Shown here: piece by piece, positions 21,644 to 44,060 of the stretch
Layout of the letters: each line of letters begins with the position of its first letter
Numbering within the stretch: the stretch's first letter is position 1
Assembly: GCA_014382665.1 (NCBI GenBank)
Contig: JACNJH010000113.1
Coordinates: 1-44,060 of the forward strand
Length of the DNA: 44,060 nt
From: Candidatus Desulfatibia profunda
GTDB taxonomy: Bacteria; Desulfobacterota; Desulfobacteria; Desulfobacterales; UBA11574
Direction: 5' to 3'
The notes under the pieces: model-generated
What the model saw: the letters and a program-made list of their open reading frames with translations, nothing else
Told to the model about the DNA's origin: nothing
The model's database searches: none
Position numbers and translations under genes: made by a program

Positions 21644-23539
21644 GTGTATCTTGAAACTTTCTCACAAACCGTAAAGCCCGACCCCTACATTCTGATGTCC
21701 GAATGGGCAGAGGAAAAGTTTCAACTGGCCGAATACTCAGCGGAACGTGGAAGTTATCGGCTAAACAGAACGCCGTTCATGCGGGAAATCCTTGAGGTTT
21801 TGTCGCCTCAGCACCCGGCGCAGGATATCGTTTTAATGAAACCTACCCAGCTAGCCGGCACGACAGGGAGCCTCATCATAATTTGTTTTGGGATTGATAC
21901 CGGCCTGGGCGACATGCTGATGATGATGCCAACTGATGCCATGGCGAAACGGTTCTCAAAGAAAAGGCTGGCAAAAACAATCGAGCTTATGCCCGATCTG
22001 AAAGGAAAGATCAGTCCGGCGAAAAGTAGGGATTCGGCAAATACGATTTTAGATAAAGTTTATTCCGGCGGATCAATTACGCTATCCGGATCAAATTCCG
22101 GTGCCTCTTATCGCTCTGACACTTACCGAGTTGTTATCGGTGACGATCTAGACGGTTTTGAAATGGATATCGGCGGCGAAGGCGATCCTGGGGAGCTTCT
22201 TGACGCTCGTACCGGTTCAATCGCAAATTCCAAAGTATATAAAAATTCGACTCCAACTTTGAAAGAAACAAGTCTAATCTATCGAGAGTATCAATCATCA
22301 AGCCAAGGCAAGTTTTATGTGCCGTGTCCTTATTGTGAAGAATTCCAATATTTTAAATGGGGCGGTCTTGATGCGAATTTTGGGATTAAGTTCACCCGGG
22401 ATGAGGACAGAGACATTACAGATGTTTGGTATCAGTGCGAATTTTGCCGGGCCCGGATCGATGAGTACAAAAAACCGTCCATGATCGAAAAGGGAAAGTA
22501 TGTTCACAAGTATCCGAACCGGAAAAAACGCGGATTTCAATACAACGCTCTTTACACGCCTATCGGTTGGAAAAATACCTGGACCCGGTTAGTTGAAAAA
22601 TTTCTGATAGCGAAGAAGGAATTGAAAACCGGGCAGCCTCAAAAAATGGTTACTTTTACCAACACGATGATGGCCGAACCGTGGGAGGGCCTGGGCGAAA
22701 GACCATCATGGGAAATGTTAGCGCAAAGAGTTGAACCGTATCATCCTCAAACTGTCCCAAGCCTTGGGCTAATTTTAACCTGCGCCGTTGATACCCACGA
22801 CACCCGGCTTGATGTTTTGGTTAAAGCATGGGGTAGGGATGAAGAAAGCTGGCTGATTTATTATACTAAACTTCATGGAGATCCAAACAGCCCAGAAGTT
22901 TGGACTGCGCTCGATATGATTATCAACGCTGGATATCAACACGTAGATGGTCATATATTACACATTTTGTCTATTTGTATTGATTCCGGTGGCCACAGAA
23001 CGCCGGCGGTTTATAATTATTGCCGGACTCGATTTCCGAAGGTGGTTGCGATTAAAGGGAGTACAAGGGATACCGCGCCCATAATTGGCATAAAGCCGTC
23101 AACGGTTGACGTAACCTTTGGAGGTCAAACAATCAAAGGGGGCTGCCAGCTTTGGACGGTGGGCGGATATCAGGCAAAGACAACGATTTATTCTCGGTTG
23201 AACCTAGCCGGCCGGGGCGGCGGTGTCTATCACTGGCCGGAGGGCACGCCAGATGATTATTTCAAGGAATTAACAGCAGAAAAGTTGAAATTACGATACG
23301 TCAAGGGCTACCCGGTTTACGAATGGACAATGGAGGCAGGCCGCGCGAACCATGCGTTTGACTTAGAGGTGTACGCCTATGCCGCAGCTATCCGGGCGGG
23401 GATGAACAGGCCCGGATTTTGGGATAGTATTGAGCGAGATTTCAAGAAAAAACAGGTAGAAAGACCGAAAAGTGAGGAAAAAACTGAGAAAAAGAACGGA
23501 TTTATACCTCAAGATGCGGGGAAGGGATGGTTTAGATGA
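21644..23539 (+). CDS. Terminase large subunit, GpA type, GTG start
   Basis: A 631-residue packaging motor. The ATPase part has an atypical Walker A KPTQLAGTT (66-74) as in GpA proteins and Walker B RVVIGDDLD (162-170). A zinc knuckle CPYC...CEFC lies near 230-270. The nuclease part starts near 380 with TCAVDTHDTRLDVLV. The C-terminus is basic. It cuts concatemeric DNA at cos-like sites and fills heads. It follows the Nu1-like gene directly (GTG start; GGAGG lies inside the previous gene). The lambda A-type terminase predicts cohesive-end packaging. Confidence 0.93.
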   Translation: MYLETFSQTVKPDPYILMSEWAEEKFQLAEYSAERGSYRLNRTPFMREILEVLSPQHPAQDIVLMKPTQLAGTTGSLIIICFGIDTGLGDMLMMMPTDAMAKRFSKKRLAKTIELMPDLKGKISPAKSRDSANTILDKVYSGGSITLSGSNSGASYRSDTYRVVIGDDLDGFEMDIGGEGDPGELLDARTGSIANSKVYKNSTPTLKETSLIYREYQSSSQGKFYVPCPYCEEFQYFKWGGLDANFGIKFTRDEDRDITDVWYQCEFCRARIDEYKKPSMIEKGKYVHKYPNRKKRGFQYNALYTPIGWKNTWTRLVEKFLIAKKELKTGQPQKMVTFTNTMMAEPWEGLGERPSWEMLAQRVEPYHPQTVPSLGLILTCAVDTHDTRLDVLVKAWGRDEESWLIYYTKLHGDPNSPEVWTALDMIINAGYQHVDGHILHILSICIDSGGHRTPAVYNYCRTRFPKVVAIKGSTRDTAPIIGIKPSTVDVTFGGQTIKGGCQLWTVGGYQAKTTIYSRLNLAGRGGGVYHWPEGTPDDYFKELTAEKLKLRYVKGYPVYEWTMEAGRANHAFDLEVYAYAAAIRAGMNRPGFWDSIERDFKKKQVERPKSEEKTEKKNGFIPQDAGKGWFR

Positions 23540-23793
23540 TAAGAGAGATTGCAGAAGCCAGGATTAAAAGCAAACTCGATAAATTGTTTCATGATCACGG
23601 CATGGTTGTCAGCGTTGTTTTTTATAACTCAGCAACGCGCATGTTTACCGATGCGATTATGGATGCCTATGAGCGAGGTAAAAAAGATTTAGTAAATGGC
23701 ATGGCGGGGCCTGGCAAGGCGAGGCATGGCTCGGCAAGGCGAGGCGGGGCAAGACAAGGCAAGGATAATTATAAAAAAAGAGCACAGAGTTAA
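23536..23793 (+). CDS. Small hypothetical protein with repeat-derived tail, 85 aa
   Basis: Overlaps the terminase stop as ATGA. Residues 1-55 are a helical domain (AEARIKSKLDKLFHDHGM; MFTDAIMDAYERGKKDLVN). The last 30 residues come from a GGCAAGGCGA-like DNA repeat and read as Gly/Ala/Arg-rich. The repeat tail is probably unstructured and length-variable between relatives. Function unknown. Confidence 0.55.
   Translation: MIREIAEARIKSKLDKLFHDHGMVVSVVFYNSATRMFTDAIMDAYERGKKDLVNGMAGPGKARHGSARRGGARQGKDNYKKRAQS
23698..23765. repeat. GGC-rich short tandem repeat
   Basis: Imperfect 5-bp and 10-bp units (GGCAAGGCGA, GGCATGGC, GGCGGGGC) repeat through about 68 bp with strong purine/G bias. Units of 5 bp would shift the frame when copy number changes. 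Confidence 0.65.
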
Positions 23794-24033
23794 TTGACCA
23801 AGACCAAAGAAATCATAATAATCAAAGGGCTTGATGATCTTGTCGAATGGCTACGGTCGATAGGGTTTACTGTTACCCGGCCTACATTAACAAAGTATAT
23901 CGAAAAGGGTTTGCCTCACTGGTACGAATTTGGAGCGTATCATTTTCATACTGAAAACGTGTTGAATTATTTTAAGGGCATGTGCATGCAAACGAGAAGA
24001 GGCGAAGTGCCAGACGAAAAAAACGAGGTTTAA
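23794..24033 (+). CDS. Small HTH protein, TTG start, 79 aa
   Basis: Residues 10-62 look like a short winged HTH (LDDLVEWLRSIGFTVTRPTL, TKYIEKGLPHWYEF), as in excisionase or terminase-associated DNA-binding proteins. No ATG is in frame; TTG 23794 follows the preceding stop, but the SD is weak. Position between terminase and the gpW-like gene suggests a packaging or head-assembly accessory. Confidence 0.5.
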   Translation: MTKTKEIIIIKGLDDLVEWLRSIGFTVTRPTLTKYIEKGLPHWYEFGAYHFHTENVLNYFKGMCMQTRRGEVPDEKNEV

Positions 24034-24059
24034 TTAATGAGCACTTGTCAAGTAAAATT

Positions 24060-24113
24060 TCGGTCAATCTGTATATTGTTTAGGTAAAGAATCGGTCAAT
24101 CTGTACCCTGTTT
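24060..24113. repeat. 22-bp direct repeat, 32-bp period
   Basis: TCGGTCAATCTGTA-N3-TGTTT occurs at 24060-24081 and 24092-24113 in a non-coding gap. Paired repeats of this type occur at ends of IS21-family elements and also as tandem operator sites. Confidence 0.55.
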
Positions 24114-24123
24114 GCATCATTTG

Positions 24124-24178
24124 AAAAAACCCGGCCTTATAATGGAAAAAACAAACCATTATTTAGCGGGGTTTTTTT
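24124..24178 (+). terminator. Terminator-like hairpin abutting the next start
   Basis: AAAAAACCC pairs with GGGGTTTTTTT around an inner perfect stem ATAATGG/CCATTAT (24139-24145 with 24156-24162). The T-run ends at 24178 and ATG 24179 follows directly, so termination and translation start would compete. Confidence 0.6.
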
Positions 24179-24478
24179 ATGTCAAAATGTAACGGACTAA
24201 AAGCAGACGGGTCACCTTGTAAAAGTATTCGTGCCCTTGAAAACGGTTTTTGCGCTGCCCACCAAGATCAATTCATTTCCGAACCAACCAAAGAAGTTTC
24301 TGTAATTCCCGAAATTCACACCACAACCTTAATGCCAGAAAACCGTATTTTGAATTACGGCAAGAATCCGCCTTGCCCGGAGTGCGGGGCACATCCAACC
24401 GTTTGTATGCTTAAAAATGTTGGCTACATGCTTCGCAGATGCCGCGCTTGCGGTCATAGATTTGAGGTTAAGAGATAA
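24179..24478 (+). CDS. Zinc-finger protein, 99 aa
   Basis: An N-terminal CNGLKADGSPC...GFCAAH unit (C4, C14, C26, H29) is a typical short phage zinc finger. A C-terminal zinc ribbon CPECGAHPTVC...RRCRACG lies at 66-92, similar to Ogr/Delta-type ribbons. Two zinc units joined by a linker suggest a nucleic-acid-binding, perhaps late transcription, role. It has no ordinary SD; the T-run of a terminator precedes the start. It overlaps the gpW-like gene by 1 nt. Confidence 0.65.
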   Translation: MSKCNGLKADGSPCKSIRALENGFCAAHQDQFISEPTKEVSVIPEIHTTTLMPENRILNYGKNPPCPECGAHPTVCMLKNVGYMLRRCRACGHRFEVKR

Positions 24479-24711
24479 TGGCTTTTTCAACATGGGCTGC
24501 ATTAAGAACTGCAATCAAGGACGCAATTGCTAACCATGTTGCCGGTACGCCTTGCACTGGGTCTTACTCAATCGGCAACCGTAGCATTTCCTATCGCTCT
24601 TTTGATGAACTTTGTCAACTTCTTGAGAGAACTTATACCCTTGAATCAATCGAGTCAAGGGGCGACCGGACACAGATGGTTTCATACGGTAGACACCGGA
24701 GGTTTAGTTAA
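24478..24711 (+). CDS. gpW-like head-tail joining protein, 77 aa
   Basis: Position between the large terminase and the portal, length and pattern (SISYRSFDELCQLLERTYTL...YGRHRRF) match the gpW family of lambda, which closes the head before tail joining. A helix, a short beta hairpin (GSYSIGNRSISY) and a second helix are predicted in order. 1-nt overlaps with genes on both sides. SD weak. Confidence 0.7.
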   Translation: MAFSTWAALRTAIKDAIANHVAGTPCTGSYSIGNRSISYRSFDELCQLLERTYTLESIESRGDRTQMVSYGRHRRFS

Positions 24712-26381
24712 TGAGCTGGTTTTACAAACAATATACAAAATTCTTTCCCGAAAGGGCGCTAAAAAGTTTTATTGCATCGAGACGGATTGCCAGACTTACA
24801 GAACTTCAAGAGAATCGGGATAATTTCATTGATGGCTTTCGAAGTTTTGAATCCGTTGCCAAGGGCCGGGGCCGGTTTGATTTAACATCCGATTCTCGCA
24901 ATATGGATGCCTCGATAGCTGACTCCGGCGAATCGCTTCGCAATCATGTTCGGCAGCTTGAGCAAAACAACGGCCATGTGTCCGGCCCTATCAGGCGGAT
25001 TGTAAATAACTATATCGGCCAGGGTATTAGATTTCAATCGGCGGTTATGGCAGATGCCTCTGGTAAGAAGGCTGGATTTCCGAAGATCAACGAGTCGATG
25101 GCCGACCTCGCGGTCTATTTTTTTGAAAAGCATTTTGCGGCCTGGAACAAACAGGCGGACGTTAGACTTTTGCAAAGCTTCTATGAACAACAAAAGACAA
25201 TCGGCGGGGCATTAGAGCGTGATGGTGAAAGTCTTGTAATCGGCAGGATCAGTAATCGGCGCGGTCGGATCATTCCGTATTGTTTGGAAGTTCTGGAAAT
25301 TGACCGCCTGCAAACCCCTCCAGGTGAAATCACGAATCCAAAGATCAGGCGCGGTATTGAGTATGACGATGAGGGAGTGCCAAAAACTTATTTTATTCTC
25401 AAGGCGCACCCGGGCGAGAGAATCACCTTTGCTGTAGATAATTGGGAGTTTGACGCGGTGCCCGCTTATTTTGACACACCCGGCGAAGGTAAACTCCAAA
25501 AAGTGTTCCATTTGTTTAACCCTTTTCGCAGGCCGGAACAGACAAGAGGTTTTTCAGAATTTGCACCTGGTTTAAAAGACCTTCACGATCTTGACCGCTA
25601 TATGGAGGCCGAAAAGCTAGCAGCACTTGAAGATGCTTGTATGACCGGGATTGTAAAGACCACAGATCCGACCGGATTCGCCAATAATTACACGGAAGCA
25701 AGCGGGGGCGAGGGTTATGAGCGCATCCACGAATTTGCACCCAATAAGGTTCATTATCTTAGAGCTAATGAAGATTTTAACGTTCATGGACCAACACGGC
25801 CCAATACCGCCTTCGCGGAGGTAATTAATCAGTGGTTAAGAGGTCCGGCCAACGCTTTAGACATACCGCCGGAAGTTTTTACTCAAAACTGGCAGGGTTT
25901 GAACTACAGTAATGCCCGCACAATCCTGCTGAATTTTTATATGTCCCTAAACGCGAGAATAGCCTACTTGCGCGATCATTTATGCATTCCGGTTTGGGAA
26001 AATGTCGGTACATGGCTGGTTATTAAGGGCCTGGTTCCGGCATTGGGTTTCGACAGGCGGCGCGATGACTACCTATCAAGCACCTGGATACCAGCGGTTT
26101 ATCGGAAATGGGTTGACCCAACCAAGGAGGCCCAGGGAAAGCAGATTGATATGGAAAATTTGATTGAAAACCTTGGTGATGTTTTGGCTGAACGCGGAAT
26201 TGATTTTGATACTCATATCGAAAAGAGGGCGCGGGAAGTTAAAAAAATCCAAGAAGTCGAGAAAAAGCACGGTGTGAAGTTAACAAAAACAGTCGAAAAA
26301 CCAGCAGAAGTTACACCGAACAAGGATGAAGTTGAGGTTGAAGATGAAAATGGAAAAAGGTCCTTTTTATCGGTCGTTTGA
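24711..26381 (+). CDS. Portal protein, lambda gpB type
   Basis: A 556-residue portal. Conserved portal features: SESLRNHVRQLEQNNGHVSG-like N-terminal signature (GESLRNHVRQLEQNNG), INYIGQGIRF-like strand, DGESLVIGRIS, LEVLEIDRLQTP, and a C-terminal clip/crown rich in charged helices (EKRAREVKKIQEVEKKHG). It forms the dodecameric vertex through which DNA enters. The last 38 bases overlap the protease gene. Preceding gpW-like and following protease are as in lambda W-B-C. Confidence 0.93.
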   Translation: MSWFYKQYTKFFPERALKSFIASRRIARLTELQENRDNFIDGFRSFESVAKGRGRFDLTSDSRNMDASIADSGESLRNHVRQLEQNNGHVSGPIRRIVNNYIGQGIRFQSAVMADASGKKAGFPKINESMADLAVYFFEKHFAAWNKQADVRLLQSFYEQQKTIGGALERDGESLVIGRISNRRGRIIPYCLEVLEIDRLQTPPGEITNPKIRRGIEYDDEGVPKTYFILKAHPGERITFAVDNWEFDAVPAYFDTPGEGKLQKVFHLFNPFRRPEQTRGFSEFAPGLKDLHDLDRYMEAEKLAALEDACMTGIVKTTDPTGFANNYTEASGGEGYERIHEFAPNKVHYLRANEDFNVHGPTRPNTAFAEVINQWLRGPANALDIPPEVFTQNWQGLNYSNARTILLNFYMSLNARIAYLRDHLCIPVWENVGTWLVIKGLVPALGFDRRRDDYLSSTWIPAVYRKWVDPTKEAQGKQIDMENLIENLGDVLAERGIDFDTHIEKRAREVKKIQEVEKKHGVKLTKTVEKPAEVTPNKDEVEVEDENGKRSFLSVV

Positions 26382-27318
26382 AATCGAAGTAAGATCCATC
26401 GATGAGAAAAAGAGAAGTGTTGATCTTTCTTTTTCGTCTGAAATCCCTGCTCTACCGAGGCCATGGTCCGAGATTCCAGAGATCCTGCTTCATGGTGAGG
26501 ATAATGTTGATTTATCCTATTTGAAAACGACAGGCAGCGTTTTACTGAACCACCAGCCGAGCGGTCCAGGGCAACCTGTTGTTATCGTCGGCAAGCCCAC
26601 GAATGTGAGGCTTGAAAATCGACGTGGGGTTGCGACGGTTGTTTTCGATACAGACGAAGAAAGCGACAAGACGTTTAAAAAAGTGATTTCTGGAAGTTTG
26701 CGCGGCGTTTCGGTCGGAGCGCAAATTGTCCGAATGGTGGAAGTTAAGGCCGGGGACACTCTTGAAGGTTTTGCCGGGCCTGCATATTTGGCTACAAAAT
26801 GGAGGCCAGTCGAGATTTCGTTGAGCCCTATCCCGATTGATTACAGCGTTGGAGTGAACAGATCCCTTTCAGATATGAAAACAATAACAGATACGGAGGA
26901 CAAAACCATGACAAAAGAAGAAGTTCAGGCAATTATTAACGAGTCCATCGGGAAGTTGAACATTCCCAAAGCCGAAGATATCGTAACGGCGGTACGGGCA
27001 ATGCTAACAGAGGATGCCAAGCCTAAAATGAAGATCGACACGGCGGTTTTTGTTGATTTGTTAGGCAGGGCCGGTGCCGTATCAATGGAATTAAAGGCCA
27101 AGGTTGCTGACATGGCCGTTGACGGAAAGACGGAGATCGAGATTTTAAGGGCCATTACCGAAGCGACATCTCCGCCGCCGGATACGACTGACAAAGGTGA
27201 TATTGGCGATGGTCTGAAAAAGAAACAAACTCAACGAGCGACTATCACGACATTTAAGGGCGTTGAGGACAAAGACTTTTTTGCCTCATTGAGTTCCCCT
27301 GGAATTTCATTGAGCTAA
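26344..27318 (+). CDS. Prohead protease with C-terminal scaffold region
   Basis: A 324-residue protein. Residues about 10-150 form an HK97-family (U35-like) prohead protease: catalytic histidine in VLLNHQPSG (H70) and serine in ISGSLRGVSVG (S116/S118). The C-terminal half is helical and scaffold-like (TKEEVQAIINESIGKLNIPK). ATG 26344 has GAGG 6 nt upstream; an earlier in-frame ATG does not. An internal start with its own SD at 26908 probably makes scaffold alone, as lambda C and Nu3 do. Confidence 0.82.
   Translation: MKMEKGPFYRSFEIEVRSIDEKKRSVDLSFSSEIPALPRPWSEIPEILLHGEDNVDLSYLKTTGSVLLNHQPSGPGQPVVIVGKPTNVRLENRRGVATVVFDTDEESDKTFKKVISGSLRGVSVGAQIVRMVEVKAGDTLEGFAGPAYLATKWRPVEISLSPIPIDYSVGVNRSLSDMKTITDTEDKTMTKEEVQAIINESIGKLNIPKAEDIVTAVRAMLTEDAKPKMKIDTAVFVDLLGRAGAVSMELKAKVADMAVDGKTEIEILRAITEATSPPPDTTDKGDIGDGLKKKQTQRATITTFKGVEDKDFFASLSSPGISLS
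26908..27318 (+). CDS. Internal scaffold protein (Nu3-like), 136 aa
   Basis: GGAGG at 26895-26899 lies 8 nt before an in-frame ATG (26908), at the boundary between the protease domain and the helical C-terminal region. The product would be a 136-residue helical scaffold containing MLTEDAKPKMKIDTAVFVDL. In lambda, scaffold Nu3 is made the same way inside gene C. Expression is inferred from the SD. Confidence 0.6.
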   Translation: MTKEEVQAIINESIGKLNIPKAEDIVTAVRAMLTEDAKPKMKIDTAVFVDLLGRAGAVSMELKAKVADMAVDGKTEIEILRAITEATSPPPDTTDKGDIGDGLKKKQTQRATITTFKGVEDKDFFASLSSPGISLS

Positions 27319-27353
27319 CAATCAAATAAAAACGATAAACGGAGGACAACAAG

Positions 27354-28193
27354 ATGGCAACAAACAAAGATCCTTTCGTGTACTCACGAAACAAAGACGG
27401 GAAACCGGTTATGTTCAAAGGGTTGGTTCAGGCCGGGAGTACCCAGGCGATTAAGCGCGGCGAACTTTGCACGTGGAACGAAACCACGGGTTATTTTATC
27501 CCGGTTAATGCCGTAGCCGACCATCGTTACTGGCTGGCGATTGCGGCTGAGGAGCAAAAGGCGAGCGGGCGCCACGAATTGACCGCAATTCGGTACATTG
27601 ATTTCTATGCCTTGCACCCAAACGATATCTTTGAGTTTGCGCTGGCGGCGGCCGCTGCGATTGCCTACGGCGATCCTTACACCCTGACCGCTTCCGATTC
27701 CCAAAAACTGACGGCGGCAGCCGGCGCCTTCGCGGTTGCGATTTCGGTTGGTGACGGTAACTATCCCCAGGAAGAAGATACCACGCTTAGGAATCAATCT
27801 TACGGCCTGTTTTCTTTTAACCCGGCGGTGACTTGGTGGGGGAATCGGATGTCTCAGGAAGTGCGGGGCGGACGGAAAGTGATTGCGGTAGCAGCTACCG
27901 AGACCCTGAAAGAAAGCGATATGTATAATTCGCTTATCCTGATTTCAGGTACGACAGTCGTAACACTTCCAGCAGTCAAGCCTGGTATGGATGCAGTTTT
28001 TATCAGTGCCGATGGTGCAGACCAGAGTATTGATCCGAATTCCGCCGATAAAATCAGGCTCGACGGCGCACTCTTAGATGATGGCGACAAAATTTCGCAA
28101 ACAACCATCGGATATTATTGCAATCTGATTACCGAAAATGCTGATGGCTTCTGCTGCATCGCTCCTGTCGGAACCTGGACAGACGGTTCTTAA
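27354..28193 (+). CDS. Capsid decoration-like protein, 279 aa
   Basis: Located between protease/scaffold and major capsid gene, as lambda D. Residues about 1-160 (QAIKRGELCTWNETTGYFIP; EFALAAAAAIAYGDPYTL) resemble decoration proteins that package a small beta-tulip. The C-terminal 120 residues add a beta-rich domain (TTVVTLPAVKPGMDAVFISA; NSADKIRLDGALLDDGDKI), similar to domains that decorate capsid surfaces. GGAGG lies before ATG 27354. Function is inferred from position and composition. Confidence 0.65.
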   Translation: MATNKDPFVYSRNKDGKPVMFKGLVQAGSTQAIKRGELCTWNETTGYFIPVNAVADHRYWLAIAAEEQKASGRHELTAIRYIDFYALHPNDIFEFALAAAAAIAYGDPYTLTASDSQKLTAAAGAFAVAISVGDGNYPQEEDTTLRNQSYGLFSFNPAVTWWGNRMSQEVRGGRKVIAVAATETLKESDMYNSLILISGTTVVTLPAVKPGMDAVFISADGADQSIDPNSADKIRLDGALLDDGDKISQTTIGYYCNLITENADGFCCIAPVGTWTDGS

Positions 28194-28225
28194 TTTTAAT
28201 TTAAACTATATGGAGGAAATAGAAA

Positions 28226-29443
28226 ATGCGACAATTAATCACTACAAACCTTGTGAAAATCGGGAAGGGTTTGTCAATCGGCGACCTGCGGGCGCTGGCC
28301 ATATCCGAGCCTGAACTGTTCGTTGCGAAAATTCAGCAGGGCGCGGATGACGGCCATATTCGGCTGGAAAAGCTGAAAGACCTTAGATCTCTTTATCTGG
28401 GATTGTGCGATATCGAGGTGCCGGTGATGGCTGATGTTAATGGCGTTATAAGGTCGATCACGACTTCCGCTTTTCCGGTGCTGACCGGTACGGCTACTAT
28501 TGCCCAGGTTAACGATGCTTATATGGCTGTCGAAACCATTGGCCAGGACCTTGTAACCGATTTCGACGACTCAAAAAAAGTCACAACTATTGCCCAGGTC
28601 AACCCGATGGATAATCAGGTTGATGAAGTTAAGGAAAAAGGAGACTTCCCCGAGATCGGCGTTGATGAGGAAAAAGTCGAGATTCGCCACAGAAAGAATG
28701 GCCGGAAAATTACTTTTTCCGTTGAGTCGATTCTTGAAAATCAGCTTGCCGACATCGTTTCTAGGGCTAATGCTCTTGGAGAGTTCGCGGCTGATGCCAT
28801 TGAAGTACAAACCTTAAAAAGGGTAACGGATTATGACGGTTCGCAATCTACCCCGGCTGAACCATATGTTTATCGGCCCAACGGAACTGGTACGGCCATT
28901 TTTAGCGCCACTGCAAACACACCCGGCACCAGGGCTCCCAGCGGAACCCGGATCAATTCAAACGCTTTTGTAGATGAGTCTGATCTTGAAAACGCGCGGG
29001 TACGCATGGCCACCATGAAGAATCAGTCCGGTTCGAGAATCACGATTCCGAGATCACTGATTCAGATTCTGGTTCCTGATGCGCTTCTCGGTGCGGTTTC
29101 CAAAGTTCTGAACTCTGAATATGTACCCGGTGTTGAAAATGAGCTTTCTAACTGGGGACCGCGCGGTCGTTTTAACATCCCTGCGGTTCGGTTGCTTTCA
29201 AGCCCAAAGCTCGACGATCTTTCTGCAGCAACCTGGTATTACGGCGCGTTTAAAAAGCAATACAAACGGAAATGGAAAATGCGGTTTGAGTATGTGACCC
29301 TTGGGACAGACACCCAGGCTTATCTTAACAGTCAGATTGCTTTTCAAGCACGCCTTGCCTACGACGTTGAAATCGGAGCAACGGATTATATTTTTGTACT
29401 CCAGAATTTGGCAGCAACAACTTCTCCTGCCGATGGCGGATAA
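28226..29443 (+). CDS. Major capsid protein
   Basis: A 405-residue protein in the position of the major capsid protein with HK97-fold style features: an N-terminal helical arm, a long acidic loop (DEVKEKGDFPEIGVDEEKVE), an FSVESILENQLADIV spine helix and a C-terminal KKQYKRKWKMRFEYVTLGTD strand. GGAGG precedes ATG 28226 with good spacing. The next gene is an HNH inserted before the connector genes. High expression would be expected. Confidence 0.8.
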   Translation: MRQLITTNLVKIGKGLSIGDLRALAISEPELFVAKIQQGADDGHIRLEKLKDLRSLYLGLCDIEVPVMADVNGVIRSITTSAFPVLTGTATIAQVNDAYMAVETIGQDLVTDFDDSKKVTTIAQVNPMDNQVDEVKEKGDFPEIGVDEEKVEIRHRKNGRKITFSVESILENQLADIVSRANALGEFAADAIEVQTLKRVTDYDGSQSTPAEPYVYRPNGTGTAIFSATANTPGTRAPSGTRINSNAFVDESDLENARVRMATMKNQSGSRITIPRSLIQILVPDALLGAVSKVLNSEYVPGVENELSNWGPRGRFNIPAVRLLSSPKLDDLSAATWYYGAFKKQYKRKWKMRFEYVTLGTDTQAYLNSQIAFQARLAYDVEIGATDYIFVLQNLAATTSPADGG

Positions 29444-33344: not shown

Positions 33345-33643
33345 GGCTTACGGAAGAAGTTGAAAAGAAATTAGCCTCACTCCAAACCAGCGATAAACGA
33401 ACAGTAACGCCGCTCTATTCCGATGTATTAACCATAAAAGAATATGGCTTAAAACCCTCAGACTGGAAGCGGCTTTCTGTTATAGACCGGAAGATTTTAA
33501 AGTACGCGCGGATAATGGAATATTATTATCTCGAATTTTCACCGGAAAGAATCAAGATGCGAGAGCAAATTAAAAAATCCGAGCATGAACAAAAAATGGC
33601 TAAAATCATGGGCAATATGCCGGCACAGCAAAGGCGATTTTGA
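32832..33643 (+). CDS. Frameshift fusion tail chaperone (gpGT-like), 270 aa
   Basis: 166 zero-frame codons are joined by -1 slippage at 33329 to 104 codons of a second frame with no start of its own: FIKELIGLTEEVEKKLASLQ is preceded by the slip, then LYSDVLTIKEYGLKPSDWKR and MEYYYLEFSPERIKMREQIK, ending just before the tape measure start. The second part is clearly protein-like and fills an otherwise empty 300 bases. The layout equals lambda G/GT. Confidence 0.82.
33323..33329 (+). promoter_or_regulatory. Programmed -1 frameshift site, T TTT TTA
   Basis: In the zero frame the codons are GAT TTT TTA, so TTTTTTA at 33323-33329 is a perfect X XXY YYZ heptamer. After a -1 slip the reading continues from 33329 to TGA 33643. 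Confidence 0.85.
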
Positions 33644-35457
33644 TGGCAGATAAGGAAACAAAGGTAATCGTATCAGCCGATACATCTCGCTATGAGAGAA
33701 GTATGCGTGACGCAAAGTCGGCGAGCGACAAGGCTACCAGTGCTATTAAGCAGGGTTGGGATTCTGTAAAGGGGCCGATGATTGCAGCGGCTGCGGTTAT
33801 CGGTGCAGTCACTTATGCTATGTATAAATGTGTCGAGGCTGCGAATGTCCAGGAGGCTGCTGAGAATCGGCTTGGAGCTGTTTTAAAAGCTACCGGAGGC
33901 GCAGCAGGATATAACCTTGACCAGCTTAAAAAAATGGCATCCGCGATGCAGGCCGTCACAACTGTTGGGGATGAAGTTATTCTGTCCGGTATGGCGATTC
34001 TGGCAACATTCAAGCAAATCCGGGGCGAGGGTTTTGAGCGGACTATGATGGCCGCGGCTGATATGTCAGAAGTCATGCAGCAGGATTTGAAATCGTCTCT
34101 TGTTATGCTCGGCAAGGCCATGAACGATCCGATTGCCAATCTTTCAGCGATGACCCGGGCAGGCGTACAGTTCACGATTCAGCAAAAAGATCAAATCAAG
34201 ACCCTTTGGGAATCCGGCAAAACCGTTGAGGCTCAAAACATTATCCTGAAAGAAATGGAATCCCAGTTCGGAGGCGCAGCCAAAGCGGCCAGGGATGTTT
34301 TCGGCGGGGCTGTTAATGCCGCAAAAGGAGTTTTTGGCGATCTTATAGAAGAAATTGGCTTTGGTATTACCAAAAACGAGGCTTGGATACAACTTGTCAA
34401 AGATACCGAAACAGCCATGAAGGGCGCAATTCAAGCCATTAAAGACAATAAAGACGAGATTAAAAAATGGGCTGATGCCGTGGCCGGTTCGCTCGACGTG
34501 GCCTTAAAACTTGCCGAAGGAATCGCAAAGATAGGGACGGCGGCATATAGGGCGACAAAATATGTTGCCGCGCTGGGCATGTCATTAACAACCGAAGTAG
34601 CGGCGATTGATCTGCTTAATGGCATCGAGGGGGGCGGCGGCAGGTTTAGAGGAAAAGGTGTAACCGGATTATGGGAACCGGAAGTGCCTAAAGTGGGTAG
34701 AGTGGTAGGCGGCGACACAACCAAACCAGATCAGGAGAAATTTGACAAGGAACTTGAACGTATAGTTTCGCAAGAAGAGGAAAAATTCCAAATCGCATTA
34801 TATTCTCAGTCTCGCATGGAAGAATTAATGATGGAATCCGGGGCAAGGATTTCACAGATGGAATATGACCGTAGCCAACGCGAGATTAAAATGGCCAAAG
34901 ACGCTCAAGAGCAAAAGCTGGACTTTTATGAAGCGGCAGCGGGAGGCATATCCAAAACATTTATGCAAATAGCCCAGGCGGGCGGAAAACAATCCAAAAA
35001 AGCATTTGAGGTTTATAAGGCATTTTCATTAGTGGAAGCTACCATCTCTGGATATAAAGCAATCTTGCAAGCTATGTCAGCGTATCCGCCGCCGTATTCA
35101 TTTATTATGGCTGGCATTGCGGGAGCAGCGGCTGCGGTGCAAATAGGATTGATATCATCCGCTCAACCTCCATCATACGACAAGGGCGGTATATCAACTA
35201 CGCCTGGGGTTTATTATGCCGGTGTGCCCGAAGCTCATATACCATTACAGGGCGGCAAAGTCCCTGTCAGCATCGATGGGGGCGGTCAAACTTTTATTAT
35301 CCACATGGATAATCCTGTATTCCAGGATACGGAAACGCAACAAAGGGTGTTTGTTCAAATCGCAGAAGTGGTTGCAAAAAGAGTGGCACCGGGGGCGGTC
35401 GTCCAAAATTATCGAGATGATAAAGAAATTCGTGCAATGGTGAGGGGAAAATTATAA
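33643..35457 (+). CDS. Tape measure protein, 604 aa
   Basis: ATG 33643 is preferred over the TTG three bases earlier. The N-terminal region has TKVIVSADTSRYERSMRDAK and a hydrophobic pair AAAAVIGAVTYAM; the centre is helical and repetitive (KAARDVFGGAVNAAKGVFGD); the C-terminal third has hydrophobic segment MAGIAGAAAAVQIGLISS and a globular end. Tape measures set tail length at about 0.15 nm per residue, predicting a tail near 90 nm. Follows the chaperone fusion with a TGATG overlap. Confidence 0.88.
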   Translation: MADKETKVIVSADTSRYERSMRDAKSASDKATSAIKQGWDSVKGPMIAAAAVIGAVTYAMYKCVEAANVQEAAENRLGAVLKATGGAAGYNLDQLKKMASAMQAVTTVGDEVILSGMAILATFKQIRGEGFERTMMAAADMSEVMQQDLKSSLVMLGKAMNDPIANLSAMTRAGVQFTIQQKDQIKTLWESGKTVEAQNIILKEMESQFGGAAKAARDVFGGAVNAAKGVFGDLIEEIGFGITKNEAWIQLVKDTETAMKGAIQAIKDNKDEIKKWADAVAGSLDVALKLAEGIAKIGTAAYRATKYVAALGMSLTTEVAAIDLLNGIEGGGGRFRGKGVTGLWEPEVPKVGRVVGGDTTKPDQEKFDKELERIVSQEEEKFQIALYSQSRMEELMMESGARISQMEYDRSQREIKMAKDAQEQKLDFYEAAAGGISKTFMQIAQAGGKQSKKAFEVYKAFSLVEATISGYKAILQAMSAYPPPYSFIMAGIAGAAAAVQIGLISSAQPPSYDKGGISTTPGVYYAGVPEAHIPLQGGKVPVSIDGGGQTFIIHMDNPVFQDTETQQRVFVQIAEVVAKRVAPGAVVQNYRDDKEIRAMVRGKL

Positions 35458-35831: not shown

Positions 35832-36695
35832 ATGCCGAAGGCCATTCCAGCAGATGTCGTAACTCAAATGGACGCTGTAGGAAAAAGACCAGTTCTTTTG
35901 CTTGAACTGGGGCTGTCCTCTATCCTTCGTTATGCTGCTTATAAATCAAATATAACGTTTGAGGCTACCACGGGAAACCCCTATACCGCAAAAGCAATTG
36001 AAGTGTCTGGATTAAGTCAATCGCTTGAAGGTCAAATCGGAAGAATTACGATAAAATTCGATAATGTTATGAAGGATATGGCGGCTTATGCTGATCATGA
36101 GGATTTCCGGGGTAAAACATTAATTATAAAAAGAATATACCTTGATTCTATTGTAAACGCTACGGATTACAATGAAGTTTTCAACGGCACCATGGAGCGG
36201 CCAAGCGAGATTGGCCCACAATGGCTTACTGTTACGGCGGTATCTGGCAAGCCGTTAAACCGCAAAGTACATGATTTTGCTTATCAGCGGATGTGTCCGT
36301 GGAGATTTGGCGGGACTGAGTGTAATACTGATGGACTCGCCAACTTAGCTGTTTTAACAGCCAGCGGTACGGCTGACAGCGGATCTACTACAACGCTTGT
36401 TGATAATGCACTTACGCAAGCAAGCGATTTTTGGAATAATGGCGAGATCCAAATCACAAAAAGCAGCGTTGTATATTACAGAACCGTAAAAGATTTCGAT
36501 GCCGGAACTGACACTATAACCCTCGATGTGGAAATGCCTTTTGCGATTGATAATACCTGCACTTATGTCGTCAAAAAAGGGTGTGATCAAATATGGGATA
36601 CGTGCGGGGTATCAAGCGCCTGGGGGCCGAGTGGCGATAACTCTGCAAACTTCGGTGGTTGCATACATGTGAGTTCTAAACAAGATGCGGAATAA
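35832..36695 (+). CDS. Tail tip protein, gpL-like, with probable Fe-S site
   Basis: A 287-residue protein in the gpL position. Four cysteines C155 and C164 (CPWRFGGTEC) and C251 and C258 (CDQIWDTC) keep CX8C and CX6C spacing, the same spacing I recall for lambda gpL, whose C-terminal domain holds a [4Fe-4S] cluster. An extra beta-rich domain of about 85 residues (ASGTADSGSTTTLVDNALTQ) separates the pairs. NFGGCIHV follows. It links tape measure to the central fibre. Confidence 0.8.
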   Translation: MPKAIPADVVTQMDAVGKRPVLLLELGLSSILRYAAYKSNITFEATTGNPYTAKAIEVSGLSQSLEGQIGRITIKFDNVMKDMAAYADHEDFRGKTLIIKRIYLDSIVNATDYNEVFNGTMERPSEIGPQWLTVTAVSGKPLNRKVHDFAYQRMCPWRFGGTECNTDGLANLAVLTASGTADSGSTTTLVDNALTQASDFWNNGEIQITKSSVVYYRTVKDFDAGTDTITLDVEMPFAIDNTCTYVVKKGCDQIWDTCGVSSAWGPSGDNSANFGGCIHVSSKQDAE

Positions 36696-36698
36696 ATT

Positions 36699-37091
36699 AT
36701 GATTAAAAAACTTGAGGCGAAAGAGATAGTTCAAATTTTGGATTTTAGTGATCCCATTGAACAGATATTCCCATGCGATAGGGGAGAGTGGGTTCAATTT
36801 TTGATGCAGAATTTTGAACATCCGGAAATTTTTGTAATTGGGCGTGTTGATAAAGATTTATTAACGGCTTATGCCGTGGTTGCCAATATGGTGGGCAAAC
36901 CGTTAAGCAATGCAGTTTCGATTCTTTTTGCTTCTGAATTGGCGATTGAAGATCAGGAAATCAAAGATAATATTATTTCGTGGGCGAAGGAAAAAGGGGC
37001 TCAAAAAGTAATTTTTCAGGCAAGCGATAGAGCGGATTTGGAAAAAATGAAAGTCGATAAAATTTCTTATGTAGGGCACTGGATAGTGTAA
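36699..37091 (+). CDS. Hypothetical tail-tip protein in gpK position, 130 aa
   Basis: Lambda-type phages usually have an NlpC/P60 peptidase (gpK) here; none of its Cys/His motifs appear. The 130 residues look alpha/beta (LTAYAVVANMVGKPLSNAVS; IISWAKEKGAQKVIFQASDR) and faintly resemble a GNAT fold. It could be a truncated or replaced gpK. Ends overlap the tip gene by 1 nt. The SD is not strong. Confidence 0.5.
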   Translation: MIKKLEAKEIVQILDFSDPIEQIFPCDRGEWVQFLMQNFEHPEIFVIGRVDKDLLTAYAVVANMVGKPLSNAVSILFASELAIEDQEIKDNIISWAKEKGAQKVIFQASDRADLEKMKVDKISYVGHWIV

Positions 37092-39169
37092 TGGGCTTAC
37101 TTGGCGGAATAATTGGTGGAATAATAGGGCTTTTTGCTGGACCTGTTGGCGTTGCGGTTGGTTTTACAATCGGTTATGGGGTAACAACTTATGTCGCTAA
37201 AGAAACCATCCTTGAAGATATTCTTTTCAAGATGCCTGATATGCCCGATATGCCCGACTCCCCTACGTATGGAACTGATCGAATTGGTAATACTATTTCA
37301 GAGGGTTATCCCGTTTCCAGGTGTTATGGAAAATGCAAAATCGGCGGTAATAAACTCCGATTTAACGATGCAGCCGATACCGACCTTAGGATTATAGTTG
37401 CCCATTGTCGGGGGCCGGTCAGCGGCATCTTGTCGTGGCAAGTGAATGATATTGACTGGGCATCATTAACAGGTAGCCATACAAAAACCGAATATACCGG
37501 AACACGTGCACAAACAGCAGATGCCAGATTTTCTTCCAGGGCCAGTGCTTATAGAAGCATGGCTTACACAGCATTCACTTTTGCGAAAAATGATCAGCAG
37601 ATCGGTCATGATCCTAATATAACAGTAGTTATGGAGAGTCTGTTATGTGCGCCTTTAGCAGGCGGGGCTGATGCTTTTACTCGTAACAACGCTGTTATCC
37701 TCTACGACTGGTACCTTAATGTCGAGGGATATGCCGCTGGTAGTCTCGATTTAAACGCTTTTAAATCGCTTGAGGCTTTTTGTGATGCGGTGCCTACCGG
37801 CGGATCGCTTCCACGATATCGATTTGATTTTAACATTGATACTGACATCGAAATAAACGATGCAAAAAAGCTAATTTGGCAGTCGTTTAACGGTCGGGTG
37901 ATAATGTCCCAGGGCAAGCTAAAGCCTGTTTGGGATTCCGCTCAAATGGCTAATGGGACTGGGGGCCTGACAGCAAAAACCGTTTCCCATGCGTTCACAG
38001 AAGACAATATCGTCAAAGACTCATTAACCTGGCGGCAACCCGAAAGGCCGAACGTTGTCAGAATTCATTTTAAAGATTCGGCCAAGAATTATAAAAGCTC
38101 GAGTGTTGAGATAAAAGATTCAACCGATATCGATAACAATGGAGAGATTCTGTATGAGGAAAAAGCCTGGTGGATTACAGACCAGGAAATAGCCCGACGC
38201 CGAGCGAAATGTAAATTTGATCGGTTTAAATATGGGGATTGTGAATGTAGTTTAACTGCTTTTTCTGGAGCCGGTGATCTCGAAGTTTATGACCTTACAA
38301 CTGTCACGCATACATTACCTGGCTGGACTACGAAACAGTTTATTGTTACATCAAAAGGTGAAGATCATTTTGGGCGGGTAACCGTAACATTATTCGCGCA
38401 TTATGCTGGCGTTTATGATGATGCTCAGGTAGGCACGCAGGCCAATTACGAATCGACACTCCCGAATCCGTATGATGCGCCGGCGGCTTCTACGAATATT
38501 TCGGCAACGCTTATTTCTCCTGGCGTAACCCATGATTACGATTCTGTGAGAGTGTCCTTTACTCCGCCGGCTGGTGATCCTTTTTATGCCTCAACAGAAG
38601 CGTACATATCAACCGATGATTCGATATATTATTTTGCAGGAAGTTCCAGCGGGGCAAATATTGTTATACAGGGTATGGGGACGTTCTATCAGCCCGGGGA
38701 TACAGTTTACATCAAACTTCGTAGCATAAGCGAAATGGGAGTGAAAGCCTCCCTACCAGGCCCTTATGATGCTTCTGTTGTAATCACAAGTTCAATTCGG
38801 CTGGGTGGGTTTTATGCTGGACTTACCTTTCTTGCAGATAATCCAATAGAGGCCGCTGCAAAAATATATCTTGATAAAACAAATACGCTTTTGAGACTTG
38901 GCCCAACTTCCGGGGATTATCTCATACTTGATGGTGATTATGGCGGGGTGCCTGCTGTTGTTACATCGAATTATGTTTCAGGCTATATGGGGGTAGGACT
39001 TCTTTTAAAATCTGATTTATTAGAAGTCGGCAATATAGCTTGTCGAGGTATATTCAGAACAAATATTTTTCAAAAAGATTCGATCAGTGTGGTAGGAGGG
39101 TCAATTGCAGTTCTTGCGGGGGACGTTCTTAGTGAAAACATGACAATTTATGACACAGCAAGCGATTAA
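37091..39169 (+). CDS. Tail tip attachment protein (gpJ/gpI-like), 692 aa
   Basis: Residues 1-35 are a glycine-rich hydrophobic segment (GLLGGIIGGIIGLFAGPVGV) as in lambda gpI-type proteins that may insert into membrane. Then a tip domain typical of gpJ-like central fibre proteins (GNTISEGYPVSRCYGKCKIG), a baseplate-hub-like core (DTDIEINDAKKLIWQSFNGR; AKCKFDRFKYGDCECSLTAF), a fibronectin-like module near 480-580 and a C-terminal beta region. It mediates host contact with the fibres encoded downstream. Confidence 0.8.
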   Translation: MGLLGGIIGGIIGLFAGPVGVAVGFTIGYGVTTYVAKETILEDILFKMPDMPDMPDSPTYGTDRIGNTISEGYPVSRCYGKCKIGGNKLRFNDAADTDLRIIVAHCRGPVSGILSWQVNDIDWASLTGSHTKTEYTGTRAQTADARFSSRASAYRSMAYTAFTFAKNDQQIGHDPNITVVMESLLCAPLAGGADAFTRNNAVILYDWYLNVEGYAAGSLDLNAFKSLEAFCDAVPTGGSLPRYRFDFNIDTDIEINDAKKLIWQSFNGRVIMSQGKLKPVWDSAQMANGTGGLTAKTVSHAFTEDNIVKDSLTWRQPERPNVVRIHFKDSAKNYKSSSVEIKDSTDIDNNGEILYEEKAWWITDQEIARRRAKCKFDRFKYGDCECSLTAFSGAGDLEVYDLTTVTHTLPGWTTKQFIVTSKGEDHFGRVTVTLFAHYAGVYDDAQVGTQANYESTLPNPYDAPAASTNISATLISPGVTHDYDSVRVSFTPPAGDPFYASTEAYISTDDSIYYFAGSSSGANIVIQGMGTFYQPGDTVYIKLRSISEMGVKASLPGPYDASVVITSSIRLGGFYAGLTFLADNPIEAAAKIYLDKTNTLLRLGPTSGDYLILDGDYGGVPAVVTSNYVSGYMGVGLLLKSDLLEVGNIACRGIFRTNIFQKDSISVVGGSIAVLAGDVLSENMTIYDTASD

Positions 39170-41453: not shown

Positions 41454-42209
41454 ATGTCTGACTACGGATTAATTGTAAAAAATCTTTCAGAAGAAATACA
41501 AATAGATTCCATTTATAGAAATCTATCATTAAGCCAGTCTGGAGCAAGTGAGACAATATCAAATAATTGGAATGAACTTGATCCTGCCGCTGGCGACTAT
41601 TGGACGAGGATAGCACTTACCTCATCTGCGCTTCCACCGCTTGTATTGTTAAGACCAGATACGGACAATTTTGTGGCAGTAATGGCATTTGTACAATCTG
41701 GAAGCAATTATGTTAATGTAGATATTATTACCGAATATGATAATGGCCCTACAACAATTGACTGGCAGTGCTATAGACAGAATTTGTCCGGTTCAGGGAT
41801 AAACTATGGTATATTGGTATATAACAGTGCTGGCGCTCTCTGTTTCGATTCCGGGTTACAGTACTTTAAAATACATTCTATCCATTCTATTAGTTTGGAT
41901 ACTCCTCCAGTATTACCAGGAGCTTTGCCAACCCCATCATATGGAGATTATGAGGACATATCACATGCTGGAATTTCCAATCCTTATTACATATTATCAC
42001 CTGGATCACAATGGATGCATGCCACAACAGGAGAGCCTCCTTATGTTCCATCGACAGCGATGTTATGGAAAATAGGAGTTAAGAAATTAACAAGCACCTC
42101 TGTTAGAGTTGGATGGTTTGCATACTTATTTGATCAAAGTGACTCAATAGCCGATACAGTAAATGCGGGGTATAACCCAACTATGAAACTTATAGTGTGT
42201 GAACCATGA
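41454..42209 (+). CDS. Tail fibre protein, paralogue, 251 aa
   Basis: MSDYGLIVKNLSEEIQIDSI as in the previous gene, followed by a longer beta-rich body (VAVMAFVQSGSNYVNVDIIT; INYGILVYNSAGALCFDSGL; SVRVGWFAYLFDQSDSIADT). Likely a virion surface protein near the fibre, perhaps a receptor-binding accessory. Overlaps the lipoprotein gene by 4 nt (ATGA). Confidence 0.6.
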   Translation: MSDYGLIVKNLSEEIQIDSIYRNLSLSQSGASETISNNWNELDPAAGDYWTRIALTSSALPPLVLLRPDTDNFVAVMAFVQSGSNYVNVDIITEYDNGPTTIDWQCYRQNLSGSGINYGILVYNSAGALCFDSGLQYFKIHSIHSISLDTPPVLPGALPTPSYGDYEDISHAGISNPYYILSPGSQWMHATTGEPPYVPSTAMLWKIGVKKLTSTSVRVGWFAYLFDQSDSIADTVNAGYNPTMKLIVCEP

Positions 42210-42484
42210 AAAAATTAAAATATTTATTTTTATTACTTTCAATCATTCTTTGTTTTAGCTGTATAACTCCAAAACAGAGATATGGCCCCAAATATATTTC
42301 AACCATGAAAGGTGATTGTGTTGATAGAATGGTAGTTATTCGCAACGATCTTATCAAACAAGGTTATGAAGTTAATCTTGTAGTTGGTACGATAATATTT
42401 CCAGATGGTAAAAGAATAGGACATGCTTGGGTTAAATATAAAGATAAAAAAACAGGGAAATGGATAAGTATTTTTAATTATTAA
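42206..42484 (+). CDS. Lipoprotein with transglutaminase-like Cys/His motif, 92 aa
   Basis: Signal peptide MKKLKYLFLLLSIILCFSC with lipobox LCFSC, so the mature N-terminal cysteine is probably lipidated and the protein is anchored in a host envelope membrane. The mature part has GDCVDRMVVIRNDLIKQGYE and later GHAWVKYKDKKTGKW, a cysteine and histidine arranged like the transglutaminase/papain-like fold. Phage lipoproteins of this size often block superinfection. Lies between fibre genes and the DGR target, so it may alter the receptor side (inference). Confidence 0.65.
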   Translation: MKKLKYLFLLLSIILCFSCITPKQRYGPKYISTMKGDCVDRMVVIRNDLIKQGYEVNLVVGTIIFPDGKRIGHAWVKYKDKKTGKWISIFNY

Positions 42485-42496
42485 ACCAGAGGCACC

Positions 42497-42643
42497 ATGA
42501 ACCAAATAACCCCTGAATATCTATTACAAATTATCGGTGAACTGATAGTCGAGAATAAGCTTTTACGTCTGGACTTAATAAAGACGCAAAACGAATTGCT
42601 TGAAAACAAAAGAATCAAAGAAGGTGAGATAAAGGTGAAATAA
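42497..42643 (+). CDS. Small coiled-coil protein, 48 aa
   Basis: ATG 42497 with AGAGG upstream, 48 residues (LLQIIGELIVENKLLRLDLI; KTQNELLENKRIKEGEIKVK), a probable coiled coil. It ends as TAATG with the DGR target gene, so the pair is co-translated. It could be a chaperone or trimerisation partner of the variable protein. Confidence 0.6.
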   Translation: MNQITPEYLLQIIGELIVENKLLRLDLIKTQNELLENKRIKEGEIKVK

Positions 42644-43842
42644 TGGCTGATGTAAAAATAACAAATTATGATCCGTTAACTACTCCGGCGGCGGCTGATT
42701 TATTTGAAATCGTAGACGATGTGGCAGGTACCCCAACAAGTAAAAAAATAACTTGGGCTGATCTTTTTAAGGCGCCGACGATAATAACCCCCGACCTCGG
42801 CACTCCCTCTGCTGGTGATTTGGCCAACTGCACGGGGTTGCCTGGTAGTGGTCTGGCAAGTGGTTTTCCAGTATTGTATGAAAGATCAACTCAATTAGCC
42901 AGATCAGCAGTTGATACTGTTACAGTCTATGAAGATACGGCAGTCAATGTTGATGGGACAATTTTTATAGTGGCTGCTGATACAGCGCTAGAATTAAACA
43001 CAAACGCAACATGGGATACCGGCACTGCGTTGAATGATGCAGCAAGAGCAGGACATGATTATTATGTATATGCCTGCGATAATTCTGGCACTTTGGTTCT
43101 CTTGGTGTCCGCAGACGGCACAAATCCGACAGGATATACAACAAGCACAAGTAGGAAAATCGGGGGCTTTCATTGTCTTTGTGTAGCTGTCGGCACCATT
43201 GGGGGACACACTCTAACCGATTTTGCCCAGGGAGATGTTCTACCTGCCAGCGTGTGGGATATAAAACACCGGCCCGTATCTTCGCCCGAGGGTATGGTAT
43301 TTTCCGAAGAAGCCGACATTTGGGTAGATATCTATCTGGCAAGCGGCACAGGCGGATCAACAGCGAGTGTTAATGGAGGCACAATTTCAGACACAAGGGA
43401 CTGGAATGATTTTGTTGACGATTTTGGAGCTGTCAAGAAGCAATTATTAGATGACGCTGAATTCCAGTTGATCGCAGCGGGCAGCAATGAAGAAACCAAC
43501 ATCACAGGTAATTCCGACCCAGTTACCACCGGAGGTCACAGTGATTCAGCAGGACGCAGGATGATCAGCAACATCGGCTGTGAAGACTGCGCTGGTGCGA
43601 TGTATCAATGGCTGAGAGACCAATCGGCTAAGTATGACGATGCTGTGGCTGCCGACTGGTATAATCTGCCAGGCTCAAAAGGCTCATTATACCGACCTGT
43701 TGATACCAACGATGTTAAGCTGCTCGCGGGCGGTTCTTGGGTTGCTGCGGCGCTTTGCGGGTCCCGGTGTCGTTATGCGAATCGCTATCGCTGGCTTACG
43801 TCTACGCATTTCGGCGGGCGCGGGCGGAGCCGAAAATTGTAA
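42643..43842 (+). CDS. DGR variable tail protein (receptor-binding, CLec-like C-terminus), 399 aa
   Basis: Residues 1-75 are a fibre-attachment region (MADVKITNYDPLTTPAAADL). The middle is beta-rich. Residues about 260-399 carry the DGR-type C-type-lectin fold pattern: GRRMISNIGCEDCAGAMYQW, GSKGSLYRPVD, then LLAGGSWVAAALCGSRCRYA and NRYRWLTSTHFGGRGRSRKL. The last 40 codons are the variable repeat (43719-43842). It is probably the tip protein that binds the host receptor and is diversified by retrohoming. TAATG overlap with the coiled-coil gene. Confidence 0.88.
   Translation: MADVKITNYDPLTTPAAADLFEIVDDVAGTPTSKKITWADLFKAPTIITPDLGTPSAGDLANCTGLPGSGLASGFPVLYERSTQLARSAVDTVTVYEDTAVNVDGTIFIVAADTALELNTNATWDTGTALNDAARAGHDYYVYACDNSGTLVLLVSADGTNPTGYTTSTSRKIGGFHCLCVAVGTIGGHTLTDFAQGDVLPASVWDIKHRPVSSPEGMVFSEEADIWVDIYLASGTGGSTASVNGGTISDTRDWNDFVDDFGAVKKQLLDDAEFQLIAAGSNEETNITGNSDPVTTGGHSDSAGRRMISNIGCEDCAGAMYQWLRDQSAKYDDAVAADWYNLPGSKGSLYRPVDTNDVKLLAGGSWVAAALCGSRCRYANRYRWLTSTHFGGRGRSRKL
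43719..43842 (+). repeat. DGR variable repeat (VR)
   Basis: 124 bp at the 3' end of the target gene, aligned without gaps to 43884-44007. In the first 110 positions there are 23 differences, all at template adenines (23 of 31 adenines substituted, 79 of 79 other bases unchanged). The last 14 bp also differ at three non-adenine bases, in line with an IMH-type 3' boundary. A GC-rich run CGGCGGGCGCGGGCGG lies at 43812-43827. Confidence 0.95.
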
Positions 43843-43852
43843 CACGATAAGC

Positions 43853-43885
43853 GCAACACGGGCTGATAAGTCGTTAAGTGTTTGC
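43853..43885 (+). other. Hairpin between VR and TR
   Basis: GCAACAC (43853-43859) pairs with GTGTTTGC (43878-43885), seven pairs with one bulged T. A hairpin or cruciform just 3' of VR is needed for target recognition in the BPP-1 DGR. Confidence 0.5.
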
Positions 43886-44007
43886 TGATCGCAGGCGGTA
43901 ATTGGGATAATGCGGCGAATTGCAGGTCACAGTGTCGTAATGCGAATAACTATCGCTGGAATACGAATACGAATATCGGCAGGCGCAGGCGGATACAGGA
44001 ATTATAA
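43884..44007 (+). repeat. DGR template repeat (TR)
   Basis: Non-coding copy of VR 41 bp downstream on the same strand. Read in the VR frame it has nine AAY codons (NWDNAANC, CRNANNYRWNTNTN), which under adenine mutation reach many residues but no stop codon. Its 3' end carries the IMH* counterpart. RNA from this region would template the mutagenic cDNA. Confidence 0.93.
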
Positions 44008-44060
44008 AACTCCTGGCTGAATTCATCGGCCTTCTCGAAAGGGAAAACACAAGACGGAGA

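What the first reader, a model, noticed from the sequence alone, without database searches (positions are those of the whole stretch)
43719..44007. Diversity-generating retroelement: variable and template repeats with adenine-only substitution
The 3' end of the last gene and a downstream non-coding copy align without gaps. In the first 110 bases all 23 differences fall at template adenines, none at C, G or T. The template holds nine AAY codons in the coding frame. The protein end has the lectin-like pattern of DGR targets. This is strong evidence for mutagenic retrohoming acting on a phage tail protein.
Basis: partly seen in the sequence, partly recalled or inferred. Interest (0 to 1): 0.9.

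Follow-up and report, generated by a model that had tools for sequence, protein, structure and literature searches.

The report
Phage tail-tip diversity-generating retroelement, cut short
The end of this phage contig carries a true diversity-generating retroelement that rewrites the receptor-binding tip of a tail protein, the same kind of machine as in Bordetella phage BPP-1, but the contig stops just before the place where the reverse transcriptase gene would start.

Summary
VR (43719-43845) and TR (43884-44010) align without gaps. In the first 110 bases all 23 differences fall on the 31 template adenines (p about 3e-17). The target gene (42643-43842) is a homologue of Mtd, the BPP-1 tropism determinant, at the end of a siphovirus tail module. 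The window is the whole contig; it ends 50 bp after TR, inside a conserved spacer RNA that precedes the reverse transcriptase (RT) in relatives. Relative L205 continues a similar TR end and spacer into an intact RT. No DGR RT is in the binned genome, so the window's own RT is unproven. Relatives L121 and L126 differ at 18 of 3191 bases, all in VR at template adenines: direct evidence of mutagenic retrohoming in this family. This is a new member of a known kind. Two family-level observations are less ordinary: a small OB-fold-like gene follows the RT in 55 of 59 intact loci, in cassettes without avd between VR and TR; and at least eight loci, among them two of the nearer relatives and one genome of the host's order, keep VR and TR but have the RT deleted. 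Whether this element is intact or RT-deleted is open.

The parts
42643..43842 (+). DGR target gene: Mtd-like receptor-binding tail protein, 399 aa; C-terminal C-type-lectin domain carries VR
   Evidence: Pfam mtd_2nd E 2.4e-19; PHROG 11262 tail protein E 7e-58; Mtd 1yu3 E 1.4e-17 by sequence; Foldseek 1yu2 E 7.7e-19
43719..43845 (+). Variable repeat (VR); 43719-43828 differs from TR at adenines only
43823..43832 (+). IMH-like 3' end of VR (GGCGGAGCC...); several relatives of this clade also have GGAGCC in VR against GGATACAGG in TR
   Evidence: function inferred
43843..43883 (.). 41-bp gap between target stop and TR; no avd and no significant stem-loop found here
43884..44010 (+). Template repeat (TR), non-coding, 40 adenines, nine AAY codons in target frame; single copy in the bin
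43988..43999 (+). IMH*-like 3' end of TR (GGCGGATACAGG)
   Evidence: function inferred
44008..44060 (+). Start of the conserved TR-RT spacer RNA (ACTCC...GGAG junction with two inner hairpins; compensatory C-G pair at 44034/44043), cut off by the contig end
33640..39169 (+). Neighbouring tail module: tape measure (33640-35457), baseplate-hub-like (35832-36695), central tail fibre J-like (37091-39169)
21644..29443 (+). Head/packaging module of the same phage: large terminase, portal, major head/protease proteins

Best explanation
The window's right end is the first part of a phage diversity-generating retroelement: target gene with VR, then TR, then the start of the structured spacer RNA. By the established BPP-1 mechanism (inferred here, not shown for this copy), the TR-spacer RNA binds a DGR reverse transcriptase, which primes in the spacer and copies TR with errors at adenines. 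The mutated cDNA replaces VR, starting at the IMH end, and so varies the ligand-binding face of an Mtd-like tail protein and hence which host receptors the phage can bind. The RT gene would start about 60 bp beyond base 44060, by comparison with L113 and L205; it is missing because the contig stops there. Shown: VR/TR pattern, Mtd homology, tail-module context, spacer RNA conservation, and VR-only adenine-site variation in relatives. Inferred: an RT just beyond the contig end, present-day activity, and receptor switching.
For: Adenine-only divergence, 23 of 23, p 2.7e-17. Target homologous to Mtd over 71-394 at the end of a siphovirus tail operon. Blastn homology with vir525 runs to the window's last-but-one base; vir525 has an annotated RT 31 bp further on. 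Across the target family, 925 of 977 VR/TR mismatches sit on TR adenines, although only 24% of TR bases are A (loci were picked by an adenine-tolerant scan, so this pooled figure is somewhat biased). L121 vs L126: 18 mismatches in 3191 bp, all in VR, all at TR-A; L159 vs L160: 4 of 4. The family RT has the IGNYTSQ motif and matches BPP-1 bRT 8ub7 best (E 6e-70). Spacer RNA: 14 of 20 pairs with changes on both sides, above all 500 shuffles; the window keeps helix 2 by a double change and its own fragment folds better than 199 of 200 shuffles. L205 shares the window's 24-base TR end and reads on through a similar spacer into an intact RT and small gene.
Against: No DGR RT in the window or the bin; the two RVT_1 matches read as a group II intron-type RT and an Abi/DRT-like one (types assigned by my reading). 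Relatives L111 and L113 have RT deletions, so this copy could be RT-deleted too. No significant inverted repeat follows VR, unlike BPP-1. No reads were available to test population variation of this VR.
Confidence: 0.96

Rival explanations
1. Same retroelement, but RT-deleted in this phage: VR and TR are left over, and VR is frozen at its present sequence or is varied only when an RT acts in trans.
For: RT deletions with VR/TR kept in L111 and L113 (61-63% target identity), L012, L016, L035, L040/L042, L187 and L201 (a genome of the host's order); the junctions differ and mostly run from TR, spacer or RT start into the small gene. No DGR RT in the 98%-complete bin.
Against: The contig stops before the RT, so the bin's lack of RT is uninformative. 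L205 with a similar spacer has an intact RT. 59 loci of this clade have an intact RT.
Confidence: 0.25
2. Ordinary tandem duplication of the gene's 3' end that has since diverged, without any retroelement.
For: Two adjacent copies of one sequence, one of them non-coding.
Against: Neutral drift would not put 23 of 23 changes on template adenines (p 2.7e-17); the same pattern recurs in dozens of relatives next to an RT.
Confidence: 0.01
3. Assembly or binning artefact that joins pieces of two phages at the contig end.
For: The contig ends at the element, and L205 begins inside TR, so assemblies break here.
Against: Target, VR, TR and spacer occur in the same order and similar spacing in many independent assemblies (165 bp also in L012 and L111; 158 in L113).
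Confidence: 0.02

Closest known systems
Bordetella phage BPP-1 DGR (mtd-avd-TR-brt)
   Same: Mtd-homologous target with a C-terminal VR in a phage; adenine-specific TR to VR transfer; the clade's RT matches bRT 8ub7 best; structured spacer between TR and RT
   Different: No avd between VR and TR, no significant inverted repeat after VR; the clade carries an OB-fold-like small gene after the RT; target only about 27% identical to Mtd
ANMV-1 archaeal virus DGR (adtA; Paul et al. 2015, PMC4372165)
   Same: Mtd-like target (by Phyre in the paper), 114-bp repeats, RT directly followed by a homologue of the same small gene
   Different: Archaeal host; target not matched by tblastn from the window protein at E 1e-5
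Caudoviricetes sp. vir525 (BK063673.1), Methanosarcinales virus
   Same: Same order target-VR-TR-spacer-RT-small gene; 52% target identity; DNA homology up to the window's end
   Different: Different host group; annotated only as tail protein and reverse transcriptase
IMG/VR contigs L205, L113, L111
   Same: Exact 24-base TR end shared with the window; L113 and L205 share the C-G pair in the spacer
   Different: L205 keeps RT and small gene; L113 and L111 have RT and most of the small gene deleted

Membership tests
Diversity-generating retroelement | VR/TR pair differing at TR adenines | tested here: met
   23 of 23 in 110 bp, p 2.7e-17
Diversity-generating retroelement | VR at the 3' end of a target gene with C-type-lectin or similar fold | tested here: met
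   Mtd homologue by sequence and fold
Diversity-generating retroelement | DGR-clade reverse transcriptase encoded nearby | tested here: inconclusive
   Contig ends before the expected place; none elsewhere in the bin; present at that place in L205, vir525 and about 59 relatives
Diversity-generating retroelement | IMH at VR end and differing IMH* at TR end | tested here: met
   VR GGCGGAGCC against TR GGCGGATACAGG; the same contrast in L009, L011, L017; sequence only, function not tested
Diversity-generating retroelement | Structured spacer RNA between TR and RT | tested here: met
   First 53 nt present; family covariation and the window's own compensatory pair
Diversity-generating retroelement | Inverted repeat after VR (enhancing, not strictly required in BPP-1, PMC12875486) | tested here: not met
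   DNA fold z +1.36; no inverted repeat found
Diversity-generating retroelement | Observed VR variation within a population | not testable with these tools
   No reads for this phage; shown for relatives L121/L126 and L159/L160
Avd-type DGR (BPP-1 subtype) | avd gene in the cassette | tested here: inconclusive
   No ORF fits between VR and TR in the window; bAvd model finds nothing in vir525 and ANMV-1 but matches far from the cassette in two other relatives and a weak sub-threshold one in the bin; the part beyond the contig end is unseen
Mtd family | Mtd second domain plus lectin domain | tested here: met
   PF21916 70 bits over a cut-off of 24.6; alignment to Mtd-I1 over 71-394

The most novel reading that the evidence does not exclude
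In this clade the RT together with its neighbouring OB-fold-like gene (a possible stand-in for Avd) is repeatedly deleted while VR, and usually TR and spacer, stay; such phages could be locked variants or be diversified in trans. One pair (L040, L042) shares the same deletion junction and identical flanks (911 and 1095 bp) yet differs at 10 sites in VR, 7 of them on adenines of the remaining TR. The window, ending just before this zone, could be such an element.
Probability: 0.2. Interest if true: 0.65.

Novelty: new member of a known kind. Interest (0 to 1): 0.35.

Why it matters
It adds a well-supported phage DGR with a Mtd-type target, in a clade that reaches across bacterial and archaeal viruses. 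The clade sets two testable questions: whether an OB-fold-like protein does Avd's job, and whether phages switch off, or lend out, their diversification by losing the RT.

Tried and rejected
The two RTs in the bin were read and set aside: C128 has the group II-type motif TPQGG; C252 lies in a 1302-residue frame next to a restriction specificity gene. The contig does not close on itself. An exact spacer 30-mer and a target 26-mer found no same-species phage in IMG/VR. The small gene's profile and an L113 downstream protein found no continuation contig in the bin. The small protein has no Pfam or NCBIfam family; its best structural neighbours are OB folds (RuvBL2 external domain Z 7.3, then SSB-type Z about 6), in the range where common folds match by chance. 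PHROG 19665 (unknown function) matches only two of 15 members. Host taxonomy of the bin was not determined.

Full report
What is there. The window is the whole of contig C113 (44060 bp) in a 3.85 Mb, 293-contig genome. It carries a siphovirus: recombination exonuclease, replication O-like protein, large terminase, portal, head proteins, tape measure, J-like tail fibre. The last gene, 42643-43842, ends in a 127-bp stretch repeated at an offset of 165 bp. In the first 110 bases all 23 differences are at adenines of the downstream copy; chance probability 2.7e-17. The differences that are not at A begin at 43829, where VR reads GGCGGAGCC and TR GGCGGATACAGG. Several relatives show the same contrast, which fits IMH and IMH*.

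The target. Pfam finds the second domain of Mtd (70 bits, cut-off 24.6). phmmer against PDB gives only Mtd variants, best E 1.4e-17. The AlphaFold model (mean pLDDT 70; residues 1-88 unreliable) matches Mtd best by Foldseek, E 7.7e-19, TM 0.59. BPP-1 is among the phage-record matches at 27% identity.

The missing RT. Blastn homology with vir525 runs to base 44059; vir525's annotated RT starts 31 bp after the match ends. In L113 and L205 the RT start codon lies about 50-60 bp beyond the point that matches 44060. The bin has no DGR RT, but the contig ends just before the expected place, so this absence says little. L205, found by an exact 24-base TR end, starts inside TR and reads through a similar spacer (69 of 85 aligned bases) into an RT with IGNYTSQ and YCDD, then the small gene, and an integrase-like frame at its end (the integrase is my reading of the ORF).

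Does the family work as a DGR? Yes, by natural variation. L121 and L126 differ at 18 of 3191 aligned bases, all 18 in VR and all at TR adenines, TR itself identical; L159 and L160 differ at 4, all likewise. Pooled over the family, 925 of 977 VR/TR mismatches are at TR adenines (the scan that found the pairs tolerated adenine mismatches, so this number is supportive, not independent). The RT profile's best PDB match is BPP-1 bRT.

The spacer RNA. Thirty-two TR-RT spacers share ACTCCTGGCTG...GGCCTTGTC..GGCAAAA.ACA..ACGGAGG followed by a long hairpin before the RT. Of 20 pairs, 14 show changes on both sides, 92% of cells pair, no shuffle reaches this, and sliding the partners destroys it. The window holds the first part; its helix 2 keeps pairing through G-C to C-G (44034/44043), shared with L113. 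In BPP-1 the spacer recruits RT-Avd and primes cDNA (PMC12875486).

The small gene. A frame of about 95 codons follows the RT in 55 of 59 intact loci of the clade and in 0 of 17 loci of the more distant clade that has a longer VR-TR gap; in that distant clade four loci were looked at and have an Avd-like ORF in the gap, one confirmed as bAvd. ANMV-1 has the small gene too. AlphaFold gives a confident small beta-rich fold (pLDDT 90), most like OB folds, without a decisive match. A survey paper mentions one further suggested DGR-associated protein without a Pfam family (PMC10053308), so the gene may have been noticed before.

RT deletions. Loci that keep VR and TR but lack a full RT: L012, L016, L035, L040/L042, L111, L113, L187 and, in the host's order, L201. 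L163 keeps an RT start but no recognised TR. Junctions differ; most run from TR, spacer or RT start into the small gene, so both genes go together, which fits joint function. Misassembly of single cases is not excluded. L040 and L042 share one junction and are identical for 911 bp before and 1095 bp after, yet VR differs at 10 sites, 7 on adenines of the truncated TR, 3 beyond its truncation; neither bin shows a DGR RT. This is unexplained: trans action, local recombination or older diversity are all possible.

Verdict. A real DGR with a Mtd-type phage target; new member of a known kind. Intact RT beyond the contig end is the likelier case (about 0.7), RT-deleted the rival (about 0.25).

Noticed in passing
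L012, L016, L035, L040/L042, L111, L113, L187, L201: DGR loci with VR and TR kept but RT, and mostly the small gene, deleted at differing junctions.
   Followed up: partly
L040:8891-8990 and L042:2074-2173: Two phages with the same RT-deletion junction and identical flanks differ at 10 sites only in VR, mostly at template adenines.
   Followed up: partly
L021:7895-8182, L205:1135-1437: Small OB-fold-like gene right after the RT in cassettes without an avd between VR and TR; candidate Avd replacement.
   Followed up: partly
L049-L083 (many Bartonella genomes): Relatives of the target protein in Bartonella with no DGR-type VR/TR pair or RT found, often several per genome.
   Followed up: no
L001 (G000:C128) and L002 (G000:C252): Group II intron-type RT and an Abi/DRT-like RT beside a restriction specificity gene in the host bin.
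   Followed up: no
window 42206-42484: Small ORF before the target with a weak transglutaminase/C93-peptidase-like match (below cut-off).
   Followed up: no
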